Part shown: in pieces, positions 206-8,871 of the stretch
How the letters are laid out: every line of letters starts with the position of its first letter
Numbering within the stretch: position 1 is the stretch's first letter
DNA from: Fidelibacterota bacterium
GTDB taxonomy: Bacteria; Fidelibacterota; Marinisomatia; SCGC-AAA003-L08; D37C17
Reading direction: 5' to 3'
NCBI GenBank assembly: GCA_012964845.1
Contig: DTTG01000071.1
Location: 1-9,161 of the forward strand
Length of the DNA: 9,161 bases
Position numbers and translations under genes: made by a program
Notes under the pieces: generated by a model
Database searches by the model: none
What the model saw: the letters and a program-made list of their open reading frames with translations, nothing else
Told to the model about the DNA's origin: nothing

Positions 206-2302
206 CTACGCAGCCTGCTTGTTCAGTTCATAAGAATGAAACTGAACCCTTTCATCATCCATAGTTAATTGTACATATTTTATTTCTGGATTTTGGAGCA
301 GATATTTTGACAGCCCCGCCAGAATCTCCCGACGGATGATGCGCTGAACAGGCCTGGCCCCGTATGCAGGGTCATAACCATTTTTCACAAGGTGAGAATT
401 TACATCCGCATCCACCCTTATTGTAATTCCCTGGTCAGCCATGCGTTGTATAACCCCATACAATTGCAGGTCAACAATGGTTTTTACTGCATCATGCCCT
501 AGATCATTAAATTGGAGAATGTCATCTATACGGTTGATAAACTCCGGGCGGAGGAAGGTACGGAACTCCTCTTCTTTCAGGTTGGAAGTCATAATAAGAA
601 TGGTATTCTTGAAATTTACCACCCTCCCCTTTGTATCGGTGAGCCTACCGTCATCTAAAACTTGGAGAAGAATATTCAGCACATTGGGATGCGCCTTTTC
701 CATTTCGTCAAAGAGCACCACGGCGTAGGGCCGGCGGCGGATTTGTTCCGTTAACTGCCCTCCCTCATCATAACCCACATATCCCGGAGGACTACCAATC
801 AATTTCGAAATGGAATGAGGTTCCATGTACTCGCTCATGTCCACACGAATCAAAGCCTTTTCGTCATCGAAGAGCACTTCTGCCAGTGATTTGGCTAATT
901 CAGTTTTGCCTACACCTGTATTGCCAAAAAAGAGAAAAGAACCAATGGGACGGTCCTGATCCGTAACGCCCATCTTACTCATGCGGATAACGTCAGATAC
1001 CCGGGAAACCGCTTCATTTTGTCCCATAACACGTCTTTTTAGTTGTTCTTCCAGATGGAGAAGCTTTTCCTGTTCACCGGAGATGATTTTGGTCACCGGG
1101 ACCCCCGTCCACTTAGCTACAATGTCAGCAATATCCTCCGTTTCCACTTCCTGTTTCAGAAATTGGTTATCGGTTAGGGATTCGTTCAATGTCTCAATCT
1201 GCTTTTCAATTTCCGGGATGTCACTGTACCGTATTTTCGCAGATGCCTGGTAATCACCATCTCTTTGAGCCTGTTCAGCTTCGCTGGTATTGCGATCAAT
1301 TTTCTCCTTCAACACCTGAATATCATTCACTAATGATTTTTCCTTTTCCCAGATAGCTGTCTGTTTTTCAAGTTCTTTTTTCAAATTTCCTATTTCAACT
1401 TTCACTTCCTTCAACCGCTTTTTCGATTTTGCATCCTTTTCTTTCTTCAGGGCTTCCCGCTCAATCTCAAACTGGATCAGTTTCCGCCGGGCGTCATCAA
1501 TGACTACCGGAGCCGAATTCATCTCCATGCGGATTTTCGCCGCCGCCTCATCTACCAAATCCACCGCCTTATCCGGGAGAAATCGGTCTGAAATGTAGCG
1601 CTCTGAAAGGGTGGCTGCCGAAATGAGAGCGGAATCTTTAATATGCAGTCCGTGGTGGAGTTCATACTTATCCTTGATCCCCCGGAGGATGGTGATGGTA
1701 TCCTCCACATTGGGTTCGGCAATATAGACCTGCTGAAAACGCCGTTCCAGGGCGGCATCTTTTTCAATATACTTCTGGTATTCGTTCAGGGTGGTGGCGC
1801 CGATAACTTTCATCCTGCCCCGTGCCAGTTCAGGCTTGATCATATTGGAGACATCCATCTGTCCCTCCATATTACCAGCCCCTACAATCATGTGCAGTTC
1901 ATCAATAAATAGGATAATCTCACCGTCACTTTCGATAATGGCTTTCACAAAATTCTTCAGCCGCTCTTCAAACTGTCCCCGGTACATGGCGCCGGCTACC
2001 AGGGCGCTGAGATCCAGGGCAATGAGCTGTTTCTCTATCATATTTTCGGGCACATCCCCTTCAACGATTCGTTTGGCTAAGCCCTCCACTACGGTGGTCT
2101 TTCCCGTTCCAGGTTCTCCGATGAGGACGGGGTTATTCTTATTGCGTCGGGACAGGATCTGCACCATTCTGCGGATTTCTTCTTCCCTGCCGATGACTGG
2201 GTCAATTTTACCTTCATTTGCCAATTCGGTGAGATTAACTCCATAAGCCTCTAATGGATTCACGCCCTGATCAGGGTTAATTTGCTGCTGCTGTTGGTTC
2301 AT
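206..2302 (-). CDS. clpB: ClpB-type AAA+ protein disaggregase without N-domain
   Basis: A 698-residue two-ring AAA+ chaperone that, with the DnaK system, threads aggregated proteins through its central pore in the cytoplasm. The first ATPase domain has Walker A GEPGTGKT (62-69), pore-loop Tyr107, Walker B LFIDE (131-135) and arginine-finger region ALERRF (184-189). A full-length M-domain coiled coil spans about 270-385. The second ATPase domain has Walker A GNTGVGKT (460-467), pore loop GSPPGYVGY (503-511), Walker B VVLFDE (528-533) and sensor-2 GARP (648-651). The M-domain and the absence of a ClpP-docking loop argue for ClpB over ClpA/ClpC. Typical ClpB has about 860 residues. Here the roughly 150-residue Clp_N domain is replaced by a short Gln-rich start (MNQQQQQIN). 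The start is supported by AAAGGAA five bases upstream and an in-frame TAG at 2335-2333, so no N-domain is encoded ahead in frame. After TSNL (572-575) about 20 residues usual in ClpB are missing before RPEFINRID. A possible -10 (TATGAT, minus strand) lies at 2340-2335 without a good -35; no CIRCE element is visible. Confidence 0.93.
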   Translation of the reverse strand: MNQQQQQINPDQGVNPLEAYGVNLTELANEGKIDPVIGREEEIRRMVQILSRRNKNNPVLIGEPGTGKTTVVEGLAKRIVEGDVPENMIEKQLIALDLSALVAGAMYRGQFEERLKNFVKAIIESDGEIILFIDELHMIVGAGNMEGQMDVSNMIKPELARGRMKVIGATTLNEYQKYIEKDAALERRFQQVYIAEPNVEDTITILRGIKDKYELHHGLHIKDSALISAATLSERYISDRFLPDKAVDLVDEAAAKIRMEMNSAPVVIDDARRKLIQFEIEREALKKEKDAKSKKRLKEVKVEIGNLKKELEKQTAIWEKEKSLVNDIQVLKEKIDRNTSEAEQAQRDGDYQASAKIRYSDIPEIEKQIETLNESLTDNQFLKQEVETEDIADIVAKWTGVPVTKIISGEQEKLLHLEEQLKRRVMGQNEAVSRVSDVIRMSKMGVTDQDRPIGSFLFFGNTGVGKTELAKSLAEVLFDDEKALIRVDMSEYMEPHSISKLIGSPPGYVGYDEGGQLTEQIRRRPYAVVLFDEMEKAHPNVLNILLQVLDDGRLTDTKGRVVNFKNTILIMTSNLKEEEFRTFLRPEFINRIDDILQFNDLGHDAVKTIVDLQLYGVIQRMADQGITIRVDADVNSHLVKNGYDPAYGARPVQRIIRREILAGLSKYLLQNPEIKYVQLTMDDERVQFHSYELNKQAA

Positions 2303-2427: not shown

Positions 2428-2559
2428 GTAGTAATGCTTGCCAACTGCATTTTAAATGATGACTGTGATCAATTTGGGAATACCGGGGATCTTAATGGTG
2501 ATGGAGTCTATAACGTTCTGGATATTGTGGCATTGGTGAATATAATATTAGAGGGTTAA
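2428..2559 (+). pseudogene. Remnant of a secreted protein's dockerin-like C-terminus
   Basis: The frame opens after a TAG at 2425-2427 and ends with TAA at 2557-2559. It reads VVMLANCILNDDC, a short linker, then GDLNGDGVYNVLDIVALVN and IILEG. The second part is a dockerin type I-like calcium-binding loop (DLNGDG) followed by its helix. The first part looks like the tail of a preceding repeat of the same kind. Tandem repeats of this type end many large secreted proteins in Marinimicrobia-like bacteria. Only the last 1.5 repeats remain, with nothing recognisable upstream in any frame, so this is most likely the scar of a deleted gene. An ATG at 2434 could give a 41-residue peptide, but no Shine-Dalgarno sequence supports it. 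Confidence 0.7.
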
Positions 2560-2629
2560 TAATTAACGTTGCTATAACAATTAATTGATATAGGTCACAA
2601 AAAATTAATTGAGGTAAAAAGCTATTGCT

Positions 2630-2659
2630 TTGAACCTAAATGAGTAGTTAACTTATCGT
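2630..2659 (+). promoter_or_regulatory. Candidate sigma-70-like promoter of the cys operon
   Basis: TTGAAC (2630-2635) and TATCGT (2654-2659) are separated by 18 bases and each match four or more of six consensus positions. Transcription would begin near 2666, at or next to the double ATG of the leader ORF, which would make the leader mRNA leaderless. This agrees with the absence of a Shine-Dalgarno sequence before the leader. The match is modest and the organism's promoter consensus is unknown, so the placement is tentative. Confidence 0.3.
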
Positions 2660-2662
2660 ACT

Positions 2663-2758
2663 ATGATGAACATAAAATCCATCGCGGAAAGAAATAACCA
2701 CAGCATTAGCTGCTGTTGTTGCTGTTGTATGAATTTCTCCGATTCGGTGATGGGTTAA
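2663..2758 (+). CDS. Poly-cysteine leader peptide of the sulfur operon
   Basis: A 31-codon ORF starting ATGATG and ending TAA at 2756-2758. Residues 17-22 are six consecutive cysteines (context HSISCCCCCCMNF), encoded at 2711-2728 as a perfect tandem duplication of TGC TGT TGT. A run of control codons for the end product of the downstream pathway is the hallmark of a ribosome-mediated attenuator leader, as with the trp, his and leu leaders. The ORF ends 28 bases before the terminator stem, and its last codons (GTG ATG GGT) lie inside the segment that competes for the terminator. There is no visible Shine-Dalgarno sequence in the 15 bases upstream, and an in-frame TAG at 2645-2647 excludes an earlier start, so translation may be leaderless or SD-independent. 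A free metal- or thiol-binding peptide is the alternative, but the RNA context favours a regulatory leader. It is too short for standard gene calling. Confidence 0.88.
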   Translation: MMNIKSIAERNNHSISCCCCCCMNFSDSVMG

Positions 2759-2824: not shown

Positions 2825-2830
2825 AAGGAA
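2825..2830 (+). promoter_or_regulatory. Ribosome binding site fixing the sulfite reductase start
   Basis: AAGGAA ends four bases before ATG 2835. The frame stays open back to GTG 2805 and ATG 2808, but those codons lie inside the terminator's 3' arm and have no Shine-Dalgarno sequence, so they would be buried in RNA structure or lost by termination. The start at 2835 is therefore chosen, giving MTNWKDIL and 752 residues. Confidence 0.88.
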
Positions 2831-2834
2831 AATT

Positions 2835-5093
2835 ATGACAAACTGGAAAGACATATTAAAAGATGAAATCACTGCTGAATTGAGCGAGCAGATTGATATT
2901 TTTGAAACGCAAATTGAATTGAAAAAACTGGAAAAGATTGATGATAAGATATTTGCTGAAACCCGTTTGCGGAAAGGGGTTTATGGTCAGCGCTATGACA
3001 ATGGCCAGCGACATGATGGTGAACAGTCTAGGGAATTGAAGTATCCCAGTGGTGATAAACTAAAGGGACCAGAAACGGTTTGGGATGCGCCTGGAATGCT
3101 CAGGATTAAAATACCCTTTGGAGGTGTAAACCCCAAGCAGTTGCGGATGCTGGCTGACCTCTCTGAAGAATATGCTGATGCCGTGGTTCATATTACTACC
3201 CGCCAGGATATCCAGTACCATTTTGTACATATAGAAGACACTCCCACCATAATGCGTCGCCTGGCAGCAGTAGGCATCACAACCCATGAAGCCTGTGGAA
3301 ATGCTGTTCGGAATGTCACTGCCTGCCCATTATCCGGAGTCTGTCAGGATGAAACTTTTGATGTGTCTCCCTATGCCAAGGCAATGGCAGAATTTATGCT
3401 GAATCACCCTGACTGCCAGGATTTTGGCCGGAAGTTCAAGATTGCCTTCTCCGGCTGCAGTGAGCATGCCTGCGGTATTGTAAACATGCATGATTTAGGA
3501 GGTATTGCTAAAATCAGAGATGGTAAAAATGGATTTGAAATTTATGTAGGTGGTGGCTTAGGTGCTGTGCCTCATCAAGCCAAGATTATGTATGATTTCC
3601 TTGCTGAAGATGAAATTTTACCCTTGATGCAGGCAATTGGACGAGTATTCACCCGTCTGGGTGAAAAGAAAAATCGTGCCAAGGCTCGTGTAAAATTTTT
3701 AGTAGCCAGGTTGGGATTGGAAGAATTCACTCGCCTGGTTGAAGAAGAACGTCAGATACTCCCACACGATGAGCGCTGGACCAGCTACATTGACGAACTT
3801 CCGGCTTGGGGAGAAAATCCAATAAAAAAATCGTCCTCATTAAATGGACAAGTAAAGCCCGAAGGGTTTGACCAGTGGCAGGAAAAGAATGTTATTTCTC
3901 AGCGCCAGGAAGGCTATAAGGTAGTAGTAATTATGCTGCCTTTGGGCGATATTTCATCGCATCAAACCCGAAAACTGGCTGACATTGCCGAAAAATATAT
4001 TGGTGATTATGTCCGGACAACCGTTGAGCAGAATTTTGTTCTGCGCTGGGTGAGTGAATCTGATTTACCAGGATTGTATGAGGAATTGAATGCTATTGGT
4101 TTAGCGGATCCCGGTGCTGGCACCATTGTAGATATTACGGCTTGTCCCGGTACTGACACATGCAAACTGGGTATTGCCTCTTCACGAGGCCTGGCAGATG
4201 AATTGCGGCAGATGCTCGCACCCAAACAATGGGAACTGGATGAAGCCGTTCGTAACCTGCGTATAAAAATCAGCGGCTGCTTTAATTCCTGCGGTCAGCA
4301 CCATATTGCTGATATGGGTTTTTACGGCAACAGCCGCACATTTAAAGGCTATAAAGTGCCTCATTTTCAGGTGGTTCTTGGTGGACAGTGGACAAATAAT
4401 GCCGGAAACTTCGGACTTGCTATTGGCGCTGTTCCATCAAAAAATATCCCCCAAGTGGTTTTAAAATTGACGGATTATTATGTAGAAAACCGCAGTAGCA
4501 AAGAAGAATCATTTCAGGAATTTTTCGCGCGGAAAAAGAAATCGGTTTTGAAGGAGCAAATACAGGAATTTACTGAAGTGCCGCCTTATTTGGAAGATTC
4601 TTCATTTTACACTGACTGGGGAGATCCACGGGTATTTACTCTGGGTGATATGGGTGTGGGTGAATGTGCCGGAGAGGTAGTATCCCTCACAGAAGTTGAA
4701 TTGCAGTCTGCTGAGCGTATTTGCTTTGAGGCACAAGTTGAGCTTGAAGATGGCAAACTGGATGAAGCTGAGGATAAAGCCTATAAGGCCATGATACGAG
4801 GTGCATCCGCTCTTTTGCGCAAGGAATTCCAGGATATTTCCAGTGATCCAGATGAAATTGTGACTGAATTCAAACAGCATTTTTACGACACCAAATTATT
4901 CTGGGACCGCTTTGCTCATGGAAAATTTGGAAAATACCTCATCAATAGAAATGAAAATCCTCCCTCAAATTTAAATAATGATAGCGTACACCGGAAGATT
5001 GAAGAGAGCCAGCTTTTTATTGAAGCCGCACATGCCTGTTATGCCAAGATGATGGATATTGAGAAAAAAGAACTAAGTGGAAAGGCTATATAA
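2835..5093 (+). CDS. Siroheme-dependent (ferredoxin-type) sulfite/nitrite reductase
   Basis: A 752-residue member of the nitrite/sulfite reductase hemoprotein family, predicted to reduce sulfite to sulfide by six electrons in the cytoplasm. It shows the family's two-fold repeat. The second half has the [4Fe-4S]-siroheme ligands C437-x5-C443 and C482-x3-C486 (TACPGTDTC, GCFNSC). Siroheme-carboxylate-binding basic residues are expected at R123 (TTRQDIQ), R159 (RNVTACP), and K200/K202 (GRKFK). The first half also carries Cys164, 170, 208 and 213 in matching places, but with x4 spacing in the last pair. Beyond about residue 620 a helical extension of roughly 130 residues follows (LFWDRFAHGKF near 688-698), looking HEPN-like and explaining the length beyond the usual 550-600. 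No flavin domain is present, so electrons probably come from ferredoxin. The neighbours cysH and cysG and the Cys leader favour sulfite over nitrite as substrate. It is the first structural gene behind the attenuator, and its stop is two bases from the next gene. Confidence 0.92.
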   Translation: MTNWKDILKDEITAELSEQIDIFETQIELKKLEKIDDKIFAETRLRKGVYGQRYDNGQRHDGEQSRELKYPSGDKLKGPETVWDAPGMLRIKIPFGGVNPKQLRMLADLSEEYADAVVHITTRQDIQYHFVHIEDTPTIMRRLAAVGITTHEACGNAVRNVTACPLSGVCQDETFDVSPYAKAMAEFMLNHPDCQDFGRKFKIAFSGCSEHACGIVNMHDLGGIAKIRDGKNGFEIYVGGGLGAVPHQAKIMYDFLAEDEILPLMQAIGRVFTRLGEKKNRAKARVKFLVARLGLEEFTRLVEEERQILPHDERWTSYIDELPAWGENPIKKSSSLNGQVKPEGFDQWQEKNVISQRQEGYKVVVIMLPLGDISSHQTRKLADIAEKYIGDYVRTTVEQNFVLRWVSESDLPGLYEELNAIGLADPGAGTIVDITACPGTDTCKLGIASSRGLADELRQMLAPKQWELDEAVRNLRIKISGCFNSCGQHHIADMGFYGNSRTFKGYKVPHFQVVLGGQWTNNAGNFGLAIGAVPSKNIPQVVLKLTDYYVENRSSKEESFQEFFARKKKSVLKEQIQEFTEVPPYLEDSSFYTDWGDPRVFTLGDMGVGECAGEVVSLTEVELQSAERICFEAQVELEDGKLDEAEDKAYKAMIRGASALLRKEFQDISSDPDEIVTEFKQHFYDTKLFWDRFAHGKFGKYLINRNENPPSNLNNDSVHRKIEESQLFIEAAHACYAKMMDIEKKELSGKAI

Positions 5094-5095
5094 TT

Positions 5096-5656
5096 ATGGA
5101 ATTACAGAAATTCGGCATAAAACTCTTTTTTAAACCGAATGGCAGTTATCCTTCCAAGGATTTCATCCCGGTTTTCCATAATTGGATTAAGACTAATTCT
5201 GTCCCTGAGCACATGCTTATAGATGTCATTGATTACTCTCATATTCCCGATGGACCTGGTATTATGCTCATAGCACATGAAGGGCACTTCAGCCTGGATA
5301 AGGAAAATAACATGCCGGGATTATTATATTTACGGAAAGCAAAAATTGATGGTGATTTTCAAAAACGTTTTGAATCTGTATTTGCAACCTCACTACAGGC
5401 AGCGGAACTTTTACATAAAAATAAAATTGGGAGTGAAGTGGATTTTCAATCAAATTCATTCCGATTTATAGCAAATGACCGTCTCTTAGCAGAAAATAAT
5501 GAGGAGAATCAAGAATTGTTCTCAAATACGTTTAATGAAATATTAACAAATATGTATCCCAGTGGGAAGTGGGTAATTGAGGATTACTCTCAAAGTGGTG
5601 AAAGATTGGCATTCACCATAAATTTTCAAGATGATACAAATATCATATTTAACTAA
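5096..5656 (+). CDS. Conserved-looking protein of unknown function in the sulfur operon
   Basis: A 186-residue protein I cannot assign to a named family. It has no signal peptide, membrane segment or Cys-based motif, so it is likely a soluble cytoplasmic protein of mixed alpha/beta type. The most motif-like stretches are FIPVFHNWI (23-31), LIDVIDYSHIPDGPGIMLIAH (41-61, Asp/His rich) and GLLYLRK (75-81). I recall similar DY-H-P-GPG-HEG proteins beside siroheme reductases in other bacteria, but without a function. It begins two bases after the sulfite reductase stop, with AAAGG about ten bases before the ATG inside that gene, so it is probably translationally coupled. Position between the reductase and cysH suggests a role in the same pathway, for example as an accessory, assembly or electron-transfer partner; this is inference only. 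Confidence 0.85.
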   Translation: MELQKFGIKLFFKPNGSYPSKDFIPVFHNWIKTNSVPEHMLIDVIDYSHIPDGPGIMLIAHEGHFSLDKENNMPGLLYLRKAKIDGDFQKRFESVFATSLQAAELLHKNKIGSEVDFQSNSFRFIANDRLLAENNEENQELFSNTFNEILTNMYPSGKWVIEDYSQSGERLAFTINFQDDTNIIFN

Positions 5657-5671: not shown

Positions 5672-6409
5672 ATGAATAGCACAGCAACACAATATGTAAA
5701 AAATTCAAATGTAGATCACTACAGTAAAAATCCGGAAGGATTTCTCAAATGGATCGTGGAAAAACTGCCCAATGACAAGGTAGTGATGGGAACCGGTTTT
5801 GGGCCTCCAGGAATTGTTTTACTGGATATGCTTTTTAAGGTGACTAATAATATATCCGTATTTTATATCGATACCAGTTTTCTATTTGAACAAACCTACG
5901 ATTTAAAAAAGAAATTGGAAGAAAAGTATGGATTTAAATTCCTACGATTTTCAACTGAATTGACTCCTGAAGCACAAGGAAAACAATATGGTGAAAAGCT
6001 TTGGGAAAATGATCCTGACGCATGCTGTAATCTGCGAAAAGTTCTCCCAATGAACAAGGCGCTTGCAGACTATGATTTTTGGATCACTGGAATTCGTAAA
6101 AAACAGACAGCCATTAGATCCAGTGCGGGATTAGTAGAATTAGAACCCCGGTTCAGCGTGATCAAAATGAATCCATTATTAAATTGGACCCATGATGAAG
6201 TGTGGAATTATATAAAAGAGCATGATCTGCCCTATAATGAGTTACATGACCGAAATTATCCCAGTATTGGCTGTAAACAATGCACTAGTCCGGTCTTCGC
6301 TGGAGATGATGAACGCAGCGGACGATGGAATGGAACGAATAAAACGGAATGCGGATTACATAAATCAACTACAATAAGTTTAAATGAAACTAAAACTAAG
6401 GCAAACTAA
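5672..6409 (+). CDS. cysH: Assimilatory APS (PAPS) reductase CysH
   Basis: A 245-residue member of the PAPS reductase family, reducing adenylyl sulfate to sulfite and AMP with thioredoxin or glutaredoxin as donor. The iron-sulfur motif of the APS-using branch is present: Cys118-Cys119 (DACCNLRK) and Cys201-x2-Cys204 (GCKQC). The catalytic Cys227 sits in the ECGLH motif near the C-terminus. E. coli-type PAPS reductases lack the CC/CxxC pair, so APS is the likelier substrate (EC 1.8.4.10). The nucleotide-binding loop reads GTGFGPPGIVLLD (40-52), somewhat different from the usual SSFGAED form. Its start is supported by AGGAAGAGG ending four bases upstream. It lies 15 bases after the preceding gene, and its TAA abuts the next ATG. 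No ATP sulfurylase or APS kinase gene is in the window. Confidence 0.95.
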   Translation: MNSTATQYVKNSNVDHYSKNPEGFLKWIVEKLPNDKVVMGTGFGPPGIVLLDMLFKVTNNISVFYIDTSFLFEQTYDLKKKLEEKYGFKFLRFSTELTPEAQGKQYGEKLWENDPDACCNLRKVLPMNKALADYDFWITGIRKKQTAIRSSAGLVELEPRFSVIKMNPLLNWTHDEVWNYIKEHDLPYNELHDRNYPSIGCKQCTSPVFAGDDERSGRWNGTNKTECGLHKSTTISLNETKTKAN

Positions 6410-7801
6410 ATGAATAGACTTTTACCCATTTTTATGAAGCTTGAAAATCAACCCTGCATAGTAGTTGGAGGCGGAAAAATTGCCTACCAGAAAATAAAAC
6501 AATTACTGGAAGGTGAAGCAGATATAACGGTGAAATCACCTGCGATTTCGGAAGAAATACGATCTCTTCCTGTCACAATTCAGAAAACTGCGTATCAAAA
6601 AAATGATGTAGATGGCTACAAATTAGTAATTGCAGCAACAGATGATGTGAATGTAAACCGTCAGGTATATGAAGATGCCCAACAATATGGAATCCCAGTG
6701 AACGTTGTTGATCAGCCAGAATTATGTTCTTTTTATATGGGTTCTGTTTTTCAGGATGGGGATGTAAAAGTTGCCGTATCTACCAATGGTAAGTGCCCCT
6801 CATTTGGTAAATTTATCAGGGATCATATTAAAAATATGTCCAAAGGAGTGTGGGGGAAGGCATTAGAAAAATTGGCCTTACAGCGGGTAAAAATTATTAA
6901 TTCTATTTCGTCCTATTCCCAGAAGAAGCAGGTCATGGAGAAATTGGTAAACAGCACCAAAAATAAATTTATTCCAAAACAGGTTAAACGAGGAAAAGTG
7001 TTTATAGTGGGTGCTGGTCCCGGAGACCCTGAACTTATTACCGTTAAAGGATTGCAGGCCATCCAAAATGCAGACGTAATTTTGCATGATGCACTGGTTC
7101 ACCCTCATTTAGTATTTGAGATTAATCCCAATGCAGAAAAAATATTTGTAGGCAAGCGTGAAGGGAAACATTCCGTAAGTCAGGCAACCATTCAATCTCT
7201 GATGATTGAAGCAGCCAACCAGGGAAAGCAGGTTGTAAGACTAAAAGGGGGAGACCCCTTCATCTTTGGCCGAGGTGCTGAAGAAGCTGAAGCCTTGGCA
7301 AAAGCGGGGATCACTTTTGAGGTTATTGCCGGAGTTACAGCTGGTATTGGGGCTGCAGCTGGATTTGGTATTCCGTTAACATCGCGGAATGAAGCACAGA
7401 GTACAACCCTTATTACCGGTCATCAATGTGAAAAAAATGGAAAGCATAATTGGAGAGCATTAGCAGAATTAAATTCAACTCTGGTTTTTTATATGGGGGT
7501 TAAAAATATCAGCGAAATAGTGAGCGGACTTATTAAAAATGGGAAATCTAGTTCAACACCTCTGGCAATCGTCCAGAATGGTACCATGGTCTCTCAGCAA
7601 ATATTTATATCAACTTTGGAAAATGTTGAAAAAGAATTAGAAGGGACAAATTTGAAAACTCCCGCAGTTATTATTATAGGGGAAGTGGTAAATCACCATC
7701 AACGTCTACAGAAATATGTGACTTCTATTCCTGCTGATTATGTGGATCCAGTTGGTGATTTTGGCTTTGATATTTGGAAAAATGAGGTTGTGGTAGCATA
7801 A
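6410..7801 (+). CDS. cysG: Siroheme synthase, CysG-type multifunctional enzyme
   Basis: A 463-residue fusion that makes siroheme from uroporphyrinogen III. The N-terminal Rossmann part (1-about 190) is precorrin-2 dehydrogenase/ferrochelatase, with GGG (20-22) and NVVDQP holding Asp101, the counterpart of catalytic Asp104 in E. coli CysG. The position of the regulatory phospho-Ser128 appears to be Thr125 in VSTNG. The C-terminal part (about 195-435) is uroporphyrinogen-III C-methyltransferase, with GAGPGDPELIT (201-211), Asp227, Lys249 and RLKGGDPFIFGRG (277-289). All three activities look intact, and the length matches E. coli CysG (457). A tail of about 28 residues after the methyltransferase (from about 436) is poorly conserved-looking. 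The ATG follows the cysH stop directly, with AAGG eight bases upstream. It supplies the cofactor for the sulfite reductase in the same operon. No clear terminator lies in the 23 bases before the convergent gene. Confidence 0.95.
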   Translation: MNRLLPIFMKLENQPCIVVGGGKIAYQKIKQLLEGEADITVKSPAISEEIRSLPVTIQKTAYQKNDVDGYKLVIAATDDVNVNRQVYEDAQQYGIPVNVVDQPELCSFYMGSVFQDGDVKVAVSTNGKCPSFGKFIRDHIKNMSKGVWGKALEKLALQRVKIINSISSYSQKKQVMEKLVNSTKNKFIPKQVKRGKVFIVGAGPGDPELITVKGLQAIQNADVILHDALVHPHLVFEINPNAEKIFVGKREGKHSVSQATIQSLMIEAANQGKQVVRLKGGDPFIFGRGAEEAEALAKAGITFEVIAGVTAGIGAAAGFGIPLTSRNEAQSTTLITGHQCEKNGKHNWRALAELNSTLVFYMGVKNISEIVSGLIKNGKSSSTPLAIVQNGTMVSQQIFISTLENVEKELEGTNLKTPAVIIIGEVVNHHQRLQKYVTSIPADYVDPVGDFGFDIWKNEVVVA

Positions 7802-7824: not shown

Positions 7825-8871
7825 TCAGTTATCCTCAAGGGATAAAATCCAATCTCTTATCAATGCCACCCCTTCTTTATGAACCATTTTTCTCCCGGAT
7901 TCAGGCATTAGTATTCCCGGGTCAGTGGACTCCATCCTGAAAATAAAGATGGATTTATCCGGTTTACCGGGCACAATATTGAAATCCAAACTACCAGAAC
8001 CCCTACCGGCAGCAATGGGCGGTTTGAATACACCCAGTTTCTTAAGATCCTTTTCGTTATATTCCAAAAATAAACCTGAGGTATTGGCTGGGCCTTTTGA
8101 ATTATGGCAATGGGCGCAATTCACATCCAGGTAAGCCCGGGCTCGGTCATTAAGAGAATAGTGTTCACTACCCCATTCGGCTGTAGCCGGTATTGTTTCA
8201 ACTGACGGCATTTCATCTATCATATCCAACTCCAACATCTTCTCAAGTTGATTTTTGTGTGCGCCATCGTAATAATTATCACAATTTAAAAGTCTTGGTT
8301 TAGGACCGATGGGCTGAAAAGTTTTATCAATGACATGACAGCCCTTACACATATTGAAATTGGGCACCAGGTAATTTACATTTTGGGATTTACCCTGTTT
8401 GTCAATCCAGGATACTTTTTGCCGGTCCCCGGCAATTTCTAATACGGCATCGGTTTGCTCTGTATTCCACACATAGGGGTAGCCTGTCCAACCCTCCAGC
8501 GTATGCATCAGTAAACGGGTTTCAATGATCTGCCAGTCCTTTTCAGGTGCCCTGAAATCAGCAGGATAGTAGAATGTTTTTATAAAAATAGTCCCCACCG
8601 GAAAATCAAATTCTTCGGAGCTGATGTAGCTGACTTTCTTTCCATCCGGAAGAACAATAAATCTGGACTTAAGGGCATAATCCGTAAATAGGGGAGTTGA
8701 AATACGGTAGGGGAAAATGTTATCTACCGGGATTTGTTCTGCCATAGGTTCTTTGAAAAATCCGTAATCCGACAGTTTGGGTTTGGCATATTCCAGGGGA
8801 TTTGCTTTAATTAATGAGAATAAAACAAATAGCCCTGCAACCAGACTATTGGTAAATGTTGATACGGGCAT
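7825..8871 (-). CDS. Diheme c-type cytochrome-like protein (SO_2930/HNE_0200 type)
   Basis: A 348-residue predicted exported protein with two CxxCH heme c sites: CKGCH (175-179) and CAHCH (252-256), the latter in YLDVNCAHCHNSKGP. A Met axial ligand could be M322 (PGILMPESG). The N-terminus has a hydrophobic stretch (about 10-22) that would serve as a Sec signal, though the n-region lacks positive charge and there is no clear lipobox. The segment before the first heme (FPYRISTPLFTDYALKSRF, PVGTIFIKTFYY) is typical of the SO_2930/HNE_0200 family, whose function is unknown but which often lies beside a parallel beta-helix protein. That arrangement is repeated here: it starts two bases after the stop of the upstream gene. 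No good Shine-Dalgarno sequence is visible, suggesting translational coupling. It converges on cysG and has no evident link to sulfur assimilation. Confidence 0.85.
   Translation of the reverse strand: MPVSTFTNSLVAGLFVLFSLIKANPLEYAKPKLSDYGFFKEPMAEQIPVDNIFPYRISTPLFTDYALKSRFIVLPDGKKVSYISSEEFDFPVGTIFIKTFYYPADFRAPEKDWQIIETRLLMHTLEGWTGYPYVWNTEQTDAVLEIAGDRQKVSWIDKQGKSQNVNYLVPNFNMCKGCHVIDKTFQPIGPKPRLLNCDNYYDGAHKNQLEKMLELDMIDEMPSVETIPATAEWGSEHYSLNDRARAYLDVNCAHCHNSKGPANTSGLFLEYNEKDLKKLGVFKPPIAAGRGSGSLDFNIVPGKPDKSIFIFRMESTDPGILMPESGRKMVHKEGVALIRDWILSLEDN

What the first reader, a model, noticed from the sequence alone, without database searches (positions are those of the whole stretch)
2663..2758. Leader peptide with six consecutive cysteine codons before a sulfur assimilation operon
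The small ORF places a Cys6 run just upstream of sulfite reductase, APS reductase and siroheme synthase genes, whose product sulfide feeds cysteine synthesis. Six identical scarce-residue codons in a 31-codon ORF are very unlikely by chance. Leader-peptide attenuation is classical for trp, his, leu and ilv operons. Cysteine-codon leaders are little known (poly-Cys small ORFs are reported in mycobacteria), and I know of none described for this lineage and gene set.
Basis: partly seen in the sequence, partly recalled or inferred. Interest (0 to 1): 0.95.

Follow-up and report, generated by a model that had tools for sequence, protein, structure and literature searches.

The report
Polycysteine attenuator of sulfur assimilation operons
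In a Neomarinimicrobiota bacterium, a 31-codon reading frame with six cysteine codons in a row, followed by a predicted transcription terminator, sits in front of the genes that turn sulfate into sulfide and would likely switch them on when cysteine runs short; similar frames precede other cysteine-making operons in its relatives and sulfur operons in several other phyla.

Summary
ORF 2663-2758 encodes MMNIKSIAERNNHSISCCCCCCMNFSDSVMG. A ribosome on any of the six Cys codons leaves this segment free; one at the stop codon covers it. This is the anatomy of a ribosome-mediated transcription attenuator sensing charged tRNA-Cys.

It is conserved. In all 10 Neomarinimicrobiota genomes where the start of this sulfite reductase gene could be read, a Cys-containing leader ORF and a terminator precede it (two, near-twins, lack adjacent Cys codons). 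I count 26 such leaders in the phylum, before two sulfite reductase types, cysteine synthase, cysD/N, cysE/K and TusA genes. Of 14 leaders collected from other phyla, 9 have a terminator; most sulfite reductase loci of other phyla showed no leader. The leader mRNAs are predicted to be nearly leaderless. Cys-run leaders are known in Actinobacteria, and a Cys-Cys leader with terminator is predicted before cysS in Rhodobacterales: a new variant of a known kind. There are no expression data.

The parts
2625..2654 (+). Promoter-like motif TTG-N21-TAACTT, ending 8 nt before the leader ATG (predicted promoter; would give a 5' UTR of a few nt)
   Evidence: the TTG-N20/21-TANNNT motif stands 7-11 nt before the start codon in 18 of 18 leaders tested (0.32 expected from shuffles; motif read off the same sequences)
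2663..2758 (+). Leader ORF, 31 codons, MMNIKSIAERNNHSISCCCCCCMNFSDSVMG
2711..2728 (+). Six consecutive Cys codons (sensor, inferred)
2740..2755 (+). Antiterminator segment at the 3' end of the leader ORF; pairs with 2786-2799
   Evidence: -19.7 kcal/mol, p=0.001 against shuffles; free with the ribosome on Cys17-22, covered at the stop codon
2786..2824 (+). Predicted intrinsic terminator: 14-bp stem (2786-2799 / 2804-2817), 4-nt loop, T-tract 2818-2824
2825..2829 (+). AAGGA, likely ribosome-binding site of the sulfite reductase gene, outside the hairpin
   Evidence: motif recognised by eye
2835..5093 (+). NirA-like sulfite reductase, first gene of the operon
5096..5656 (+). Uncharacterised 186-aa gene of the operon; homolog downstream of sulfite reductase in 79 of 80 loci
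5672..6409 (+). cysH-type APS/PAPS reductase
6410..7801 (+). cysG, siroheme synthase

Best explanation
The ORF at 2663-2758, with six Cys codons and a terminator-like hairpin behind it, is likely the sensor of a ribosome-mediated transcription attenuator that would raise expression of the sulfite reductase operon when charged tRNA-Cys is scarce. Proposed steps: (1) Transcription starts within a few nt of the ATG (predicted) and a ribosome follows RNA polymerase through the leader ORF (inferred). (2) With enough Cys-tRNA the ribosome reaches the stop codon at 2756-2758 and covers 2740-2755, so hairpin 2786-2817 forms and ends transcription before the operon (geometry computed, outcome inferred). 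(3) With little Cys-tRNA the ribosome stalls on a Cys codon and leaves 2740-2755 free; this segment is made before the hairpin's 3' arm and pairs with 2786-2799, so polymerase reads into the operon (pairing computed, outcome inferred). (4) The operon's sulfide feeds cysteine synthesis and closes the loop (established pathway knowledge). Shown here: the ORF, the hairpin, the alternative pairing and the conservation of the arrangement. Not shown: transcription start, translation, stalling, termination.
For: Terminator directly between leader and gene. Antiterminator pairing p=0.001, and a ribosome-position model that switches between Met23 and Ser26 in the A-site. 10 of 10 Neomarinimicrobiota sulfite reductase loci with a readable gene start have a Cys-containing leader and a terminator. 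The Cys cluster lies 6-14 codons before the stop in 18 of 18 and the terminator 20-34 nt after the stop in 26 of 26 leaders of the phylum. Leaders precede further sulfur genes: cysteine synthase 7 of 7 close orthologs, TusA, cysD/N, cysE/K, a second sulfite reductase type. Antiterminator p<=0.05 in 17 of 35 leaders with a terminator; 14 of 30 after dropping near-identical ones, binomial 4e-11. In 80 loci, 14 of 14 intergenic dense-Cys ORFs were on the operon's sense strand. TGY fills 84 of 575 in-frame codons of 18 leaders, against 22 and 9 of 575 in the other frames.
Against: No expression, TSS or ribosome data. The pairing test fails in 18 of 35 leaders, among them 0 of 7 cysteine synthase leaders and SIR_G005 and SIR_G069. 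The leaders of G037 and G038 have spaced, not adjacent, Cys codons. In the completed leader the terminator is the more stable form in every state modelled, so the switch must be kinetic, and without a ribosome the antiterminator forms too. Five of 14 leaders of other phyla have no terminator, and 63 of 74 loci of other phyla gave no accepted leader.
Confidence: 0.88

Rival explanations
1. Translation attenuation as described for mycobacteria: the stalled ribosome would unmask the ribosome-binding site of the sulfite reductase gene, and the hairpin would not act as a terminator.
For: Poly-Cys, predicted near-leaderless leader ORF as in mycobacteria (PMC9031893 and PMC13236596 passages). SAR324-type leaders and L097 have no terminator and may work this way.
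Against: In the window the AAGGA (2825-2829) lies outside the hairpin (2786-2817). A U-tract follows the hairpin in 26 of 26 Neomarinimicrobiota leaders. In G035, G037, G038 and G069 the hairpin ends about 77-118 nt before the gene.
Confidence: 0.06
2. The ORF makes a functional Cys-rich small protein, for example a metal- or sulfur-binding peptide co-regulated with the operon.
For: Cys clusters can bind metals (general knowledge).
Against: Residues outside the Cys cluster and the number and spacing of Cys (3-7 in 18 leaders) vary widely, while the distances to stop codon and terminator are kept. Unrelated peptides share only the Cys cluster and precede different cysteine genes.
Confidence: 0.03
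3. The Cys run is a chance or simple-repeat feature of the DNA.
For: TGY runs also occur in relatives within long genes in other frames, and two inspected loci (L105, L122) hold plain TGT repeats.
Against: Only place with TGYx5 in the own genome. Runs mix TGT and TGC and are broken by single other codons in relatives. Strong frame bias. 14 of 14 on the sense strand.
Confidence: 0.01

Closest known systems
Classical leader-peptide transcription attenuators (trp, his, leu, ilv operons)
   Same: Short ORF with a run of codons for the pathway's product, overlapping alternative hairpins, intrinsic terminator before the structural genes.
   Different: Amino acid is cysteine; start predicted near-leaderless; no trp-like protector (segment 1) seen in the fold; one genome carries several, and some operons carry two units in series.
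Mycobacterial polycysteine leaderless short ORFs (Canestrari 2020; not held; known from passages in PMC9031893 and PMC13236596 and from recall)
   Same: Run of Cys codons in a (here predicted) leaderless short ORF before cysteine metabolism operons.
   Different: Those are reported as translation attenuators; here a terminator and antiterminator point to transcription.
Cys-run leader peptides before cys operons of Mycobacterium and P. acnes and cbs of B. longum (Seliverstov 2005, PMC1262725, passages)
   Same: Short ORFs with Cys runs upstream of cysteine genes.
   Different: Those authors found no obvious terminator; here terminators stand 20-34 nt after the stop codon in 26 of 26 leaders of the phylum.
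uORFC-8-2 motif before cysS in Rhodobacterales (PMC8632094, passages)
   Same: Predicted uORF with tandem Cys codons and an intrinsic terminator.
   Different: Two Cys codons, before cysteinyl-tRNA synthetase, one order only; here 3-7 Cys codons before sulfate reduction and cysteine synthesis operons.

Membership tests
Ribosome-mediated transcription attenuator | Short translated ORF rich in codons for the regulated pathway's amino acid | tested here: met
   Six Cys codons of 31; Cys clusters in all related leaders, though G037 and G038 have no adjacent Cys. Translation itself not testable.
Ribosome-mediated transcription attenuator | Intrinsic terminator between leader ORF and first gene | tested here: met
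   2786-2824; 26 of 26 leaders of the phylum
Ribosome-mediated transcription attenuator | Mutually exclusive antiterminator controlled by ribosome position | tested here: met
   Met for the window (p=0.001); across leaders 17 of 35 at p<=0.05, cysteine synthase leaders 0 of 7
Ribosome-mediated transcription attenuator | Readthrough rises when the amino acid is limiting | not testable with these tools
   No expression data
trp-type three-hairpin attenuator (subtype) | Protector (1:2) hairpin that frees the terminator when the leader is not translated | tested here: not met
   Without a ribosome the modelled nascent RNA forms the antiterminator (9.5 pairs expected)
Mycobacterial polycysteine leaderless sORF attenuators | Leaderless poly-Cys ORF | tested here: inconclusive
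   Poly-Cys met; start predicted within a few nt of the 5' end from motif spacing, no TSS data
Mycobacterial polycysteine leaderless sORF attenuators | Control of translation of the downstream gene by masking its ribosome-binding site, without terminator | tested here: not met
   Terminator present; AAGGA outside the hairpin
uORFC-8-2 (Rhodobacterales cysS) | Located before cysS | tested here: not met
   Next gene is sulfite reductase
Any Rfam family (T-box, S-box, known leaders) | Match at the gathering score | tested here: not met
   0 matches in the window; a relaxed scan of 2400-2900 gave 10 sub-threshold hits, best STnc560 26.7 bits against 55, Phe_leader 20.6 against 55

The most novel reading that the evidence does not exclude
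Neomarinimicrobiota run their route from sulfate to cysteine (cysD/N, two sulfite reductases, cysE/K, cysteine synthase, TusA) as a regulon of nearly leaderless poly-Cys transcription attenuators in which each operon measures charged tRNA-Cys for itself, some through two attenuators in series; and the same device has arisen again and again, or travelled between phyla, with sulfate assimilation operons.
Probability: 0.45. Interest if true: 0.82.

Novelty: new variant of a known kind. Interest (0 to 1): 0.74.

Why it matters
Control of sulfur assimilation is known mainly through protein regulators (CysB, CymR) and riboswitches (recalled). Here a phylum known largely from environmental genomes seems to sense charged tRNA-Cys at the RNA level on several operons. 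It links the Actinobacterial Cys leaders, for which no terminator was found, to complete attenuators; it gives a sequence signature for finding cysteine-responsive operons in uncultured bacteria; and the predicted near-leaderless start is a testable, unusual design for an attenuator, because translation could begin as soon as the RNA emerges.

Tried and rejected
Considered and rejected: protein-level role, chance repeat, pure translation attenuation, known riboswitch or T-box (see rivals and membership test). A hit in L071 was dropped because by eye it lies in the end of an upstream coding gene. L094 stays in that count but was not followed further and is not among the 14 leaders of other phyla. 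L105 and L122 are TGT repeats and were set aside.

Led nowhere: phage records searched with the leader region (no match); relaxed Rfam scan; relaxed Pfam and PDB-sequence searches for the 186-aa gene.

Limits of the counts. One search's cut-off matters: at 5 or more Cys in 12 codons 13 loci score on the sense strand and 0 on the other; at 4 or more it is 14 and 5. The promoter motif was read off the leaders by eye and then tested on the same 18, so 0.32 expected is optimistic; the fairer test is on 14 leaders of other phyla, where 3 match against 0.09 expected and 11 do not. Of the eight later Neomarinimicrobiota leaders, G006 cysD and G024 match and the six before the second sulfite reductase do not. 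Pattern scans: only the fetched loci L105-L145 were inspected, not all matches, 66 of 200 genomes matched and the backwards control pattern also matched in about 20 genomes, so most hits are background, and I inspected only those whose printed text looked like a leader with stop codon and terminator. Cysteine synthase: 7 of 7 loci at 68% identity or more have the leader; of the other 23 loci fetched, 7 were looked at (one, L160, mis-anchored) without a convincing leader and 16 were not examined because no anchor was found. DsrE/TusA: 14 of 25 matches were given to the script, 10 had an anchor, 1 has a leader. G125's copy of the long sulfite reductase lacks its start. G122 has Cys-rich short frames before both of its distant sulfite reductases (37% and 32%), not tested for terminators and not counted. 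One search returned the best 80 of 416 relatives.

Full report
What is there. The window lies in a draft genome (G000, 1.25 Mb, 251 contigs, 76.8% complete) whose nearest named relative is Candidatus Neomarinimicrobiota strain D37C17 (96% in the sulfite reductase; NCBI lists the phylum as Fidelibacterota, FCB group). ORF 2663-2758 encodes MMNIKSIAERNNHSISCCCCCCMNFSDSVMG. Downstream are a NirA-like sulfite reductase (ATG 2835), an uncharacterised gene, cysH and cysG. Cys is 27 of 2692 residues in the six long genes, and a run of six has a probability of about 3e-11 at that frequency; TGYx5 matches nowhere else in the draft genome.

The missing pieces. Twenty-seven nt after the stop codon begins a 14-bp perfect hairpin with a T-tract (2786-2824), ending just before the AAGGA and ATG of the sulfite reductase gene. 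The end of the leader, CGATTCGGTGATGGGT (2740-2755), resembles the hairpin's 3' arm and can pair with its 5' arm at -19.7 kcal/mol (shuffles -7.5, p=0.001). Folding the nascent RNA up to 2803 with a ribosome footprint masked keeps this pairing when the A-site holds any of Cys17 to Cys22 or Met23 and removes it at Ser26 or at the stop codon (other codons between were not modelled). In the leader completed to 2824 the terminator is the more stable form in every state modelled, so the choice must be made while the RNA is being made. Without a ribosome the antiterminator also forms, so no trp-like protector is seen.

Conservation in the phylum. Searches of 100 relatives and 245 genomes of the phylum find this long sulfite reductase at 57% identity or more in 11 genomes, 10 of them with the gene start. 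All 10 have a short Cys-containing ORF and a terminator upstream: CCCCCC (G000, G001, G003), CCCCC (G005), CCSCCCC (G002), CCTCCC (G006), CCCC (G069), and looser CPCCMC (G035), CIMCMISMC (G037), CVMCMMSMH (G038; only two Cys in the cluster). Genus member G004 has no detected sulfite reductase (91% complete) but has the cysteine synthase leader. Sequences around the Cys codons diverge while the arrangement stays: in 18 leaders the Cys cluster ends 6-14 codons before the stop and the terminator starts 20-34 nt after it.

More operons. Scans for Cys runs in 60 relatives and for Cys run plus terminator tail in 41 and 200 relatives led to further leaders. Before a cysteine synthase followed by JAB and ThiF-rhodanese genes: 7 of 7 close orthologs, one in the window's own genome (contig C171). 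Before TusA and DsrE in G005. Before cysD (PAPS_reduct domain) and cysNC (GTPase plus APS kinase) in G006, and before a 171-aa gene, a cysE-like gene (hexapeptide repeats; serine acetyltransferase N-domain only below its cut-off) and cysK in G024. Before a second sulfite reductase type, followed in G029 by PAPS-reductase-like and cysK-like genes, in G029 and G093; and as two leader-terminator units in series in G125 and G069. With the 10 above this makes 26 leaders (10 + 7 + 1 + 1 + 1 + 6), all with a terminator 20-34 nt after the stop codon. In the own genome the combined pattern hits two places only, the sulfite reductase and the cysteine synthase leaders.

Other phyla. Among 80 sulfite reductase loci from named genomes (6 of them Neomarinimicrobiota), 13 have 5 or more Cys within 12 codons of a short ORF in the 450 nt upstream on the sense strand and 0 on the other strand (one of the 13, L071, is a false hit by eye; at 4 or more Cys it is 14 against 5). 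A stricter scan of whole loci, both strands, for intergenic ORFs with at least 4 Cys in 8 codons gave 14 hits, all on the sense strand: 11 within 500 nt upstream of the sulfite reductase (10 of 80 loci) and 3 directly before cysH of a cysH-to-sulfite-reductase operon. I collected 14 leaders from 11 of the 74 loci outside the phylum: Acidobacteria, Chloroflexi and Anaerolineae, Entotheonella, and SAR324 and its like. Nine of 14 have a terminator; L052 and L060 carry two units in series. L032, L034, L067 and L097 have none and may work by Rho or on translation (inference). The other 63 loci gave no leader that I accept, among them all loci named Latescibacteria and Caldilineaceae, so the device is scattered.

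Pairing test. Over 35 leaders with terminators, the region after the first Cys codon pairs with the terminator's 5' arm and loop better than 95% of dinucleotide shuffles in 17 (9 of 18; 8 of 17). After dropping five near-identical leaders (G001, G038, G093 and G069's two) it is 14 of 30 (binomial 4e-11, Fisher 7e-16; the leaders are still related to one another). The cysteine synthase leaders fail (0 of 7), as do SIR_G005 and SIR_G069; G069 pairs with loop and 3' arm instead (p=0.031). In L095 (Acidobacteria) the pairing is a 14-pair duplex at -34.7 kcal/mol.

Predicted near-leaderless start. In 18 of 18 Neomarinimicrobiota leaders first tested, TTG-N20/21-TANNNT ends 7-11 nt before the start codon (0.32 expected), even where the start codon is GTG or TTG. 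In a flavobacterium the sigma-A box TAnnTTTG lies at -12 to -5 (PMC9723704 passage), which would put the leader's start codon within a few nt of the 5' end. Such mRNAs are uncommon in relatives of the FCB group: 5.5% leaderless in F. psychrophilum, about 3.7% of 5' UTRs under 10 nt in B. thetaiotaomicron (PMC7366714 passage). The motif came from these sequences; the fairer test is the 14 leaders of other phyla, where 3 match against 0.09 expected. Two of eight later Neomarinimicrobiota leaders match as well; the six before the second sulfite reductase do not.

Literature. Passages only were read. PMC1262725 predicts Cys-run leaders before cys operons of Mycobacterium and P. acnes and cbs of B. 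longum, without terminators. PMC8632094 predicts a Cys-Cys uORF with terminator before cysS in Rhodobacterales. PMC9031893 and PMC13236596 cite the mycobacterial polycysteine work as attenuation at translation; that paper is not held. [quoted passage not shown] PMC9723704 reports clues for leader-peptide attenuation before amino acid operons in a flavobacterium. No paper of the library holds both 'Marinimicrobia' and 'leader peptide' as word starts (this would miss 'Neomarinimicrobiota'), nor 'leader peptide', 'sulfate assimilation' and 'attenuator', nor 'cysteine', 'leader peptides', 'Chloroflexi' and 'attenuation'. The library holds open-licence papers only, so absence there is weak evidence.

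Verdict. A real, conserved, predicted cysteine-sensing transcription attenuator: not described for this phylum and gene set in the papers that I could search, and combined in a way not seen in them, but of a known kind. Everything functional remains to be tested.

Noticed in passing
window 5096-5656 (+): Uncharacterised 186-aa protein encoded after the sulfite reductase; tblastn finds a homolog in 79 of 80 named loci across phyla (the exception, L041, ends shortly after the sulfite reductase). No Pfam hit of the window's protein even at E 1. AlphaFold model mean pLDDT 85; best PDB folds are AdoMet decarboxylase-like, E 1e-4 but TM only about 0.4. A universal partner without a name.
   Followed up: partly
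L052 (two units within about 450 nt before its sulfite reductase), L060:1-375, L238 and L239: Two Cys leader-plus-terminator units in series before one operon, in Chloroflexi/Anaerolineaceae and in Neomarinimicrobiota G125 and G069. Attenuators in series could sharpen the response (inference).
   Followed up: partly
L032, L034, L067 and G122 (L101, L102): SAR324-type loci and G122 have Cys clusters right at the leader's stop codon; the first three have no detected terminator. A different mode of control, unexplained.
   Followed up: no
window 2434-2559 (+): A 41-aa frame just upstream of the leader's promoter weakly matches dockerin type I (E 0.00046, below the cut-off); nearly the same DNA stands at this place in G001. 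Perhaps the remnant of a larger gene.
   Followed up: no
window 206-2302 (-): ClpB-like protein of 698 aa that matches the ClpB model only from position 142 on and scores below its cut-off (1025 against 1232 bits): a ClpB without the N-terminal part, or a start not recognised.
   Followed up: no
window 7825-8871 (-): SO2930-family diheme c-type cytochrome (TIGR03806, above cut-off) next to the sulfur operon, on the other strand.
   Followed up: no
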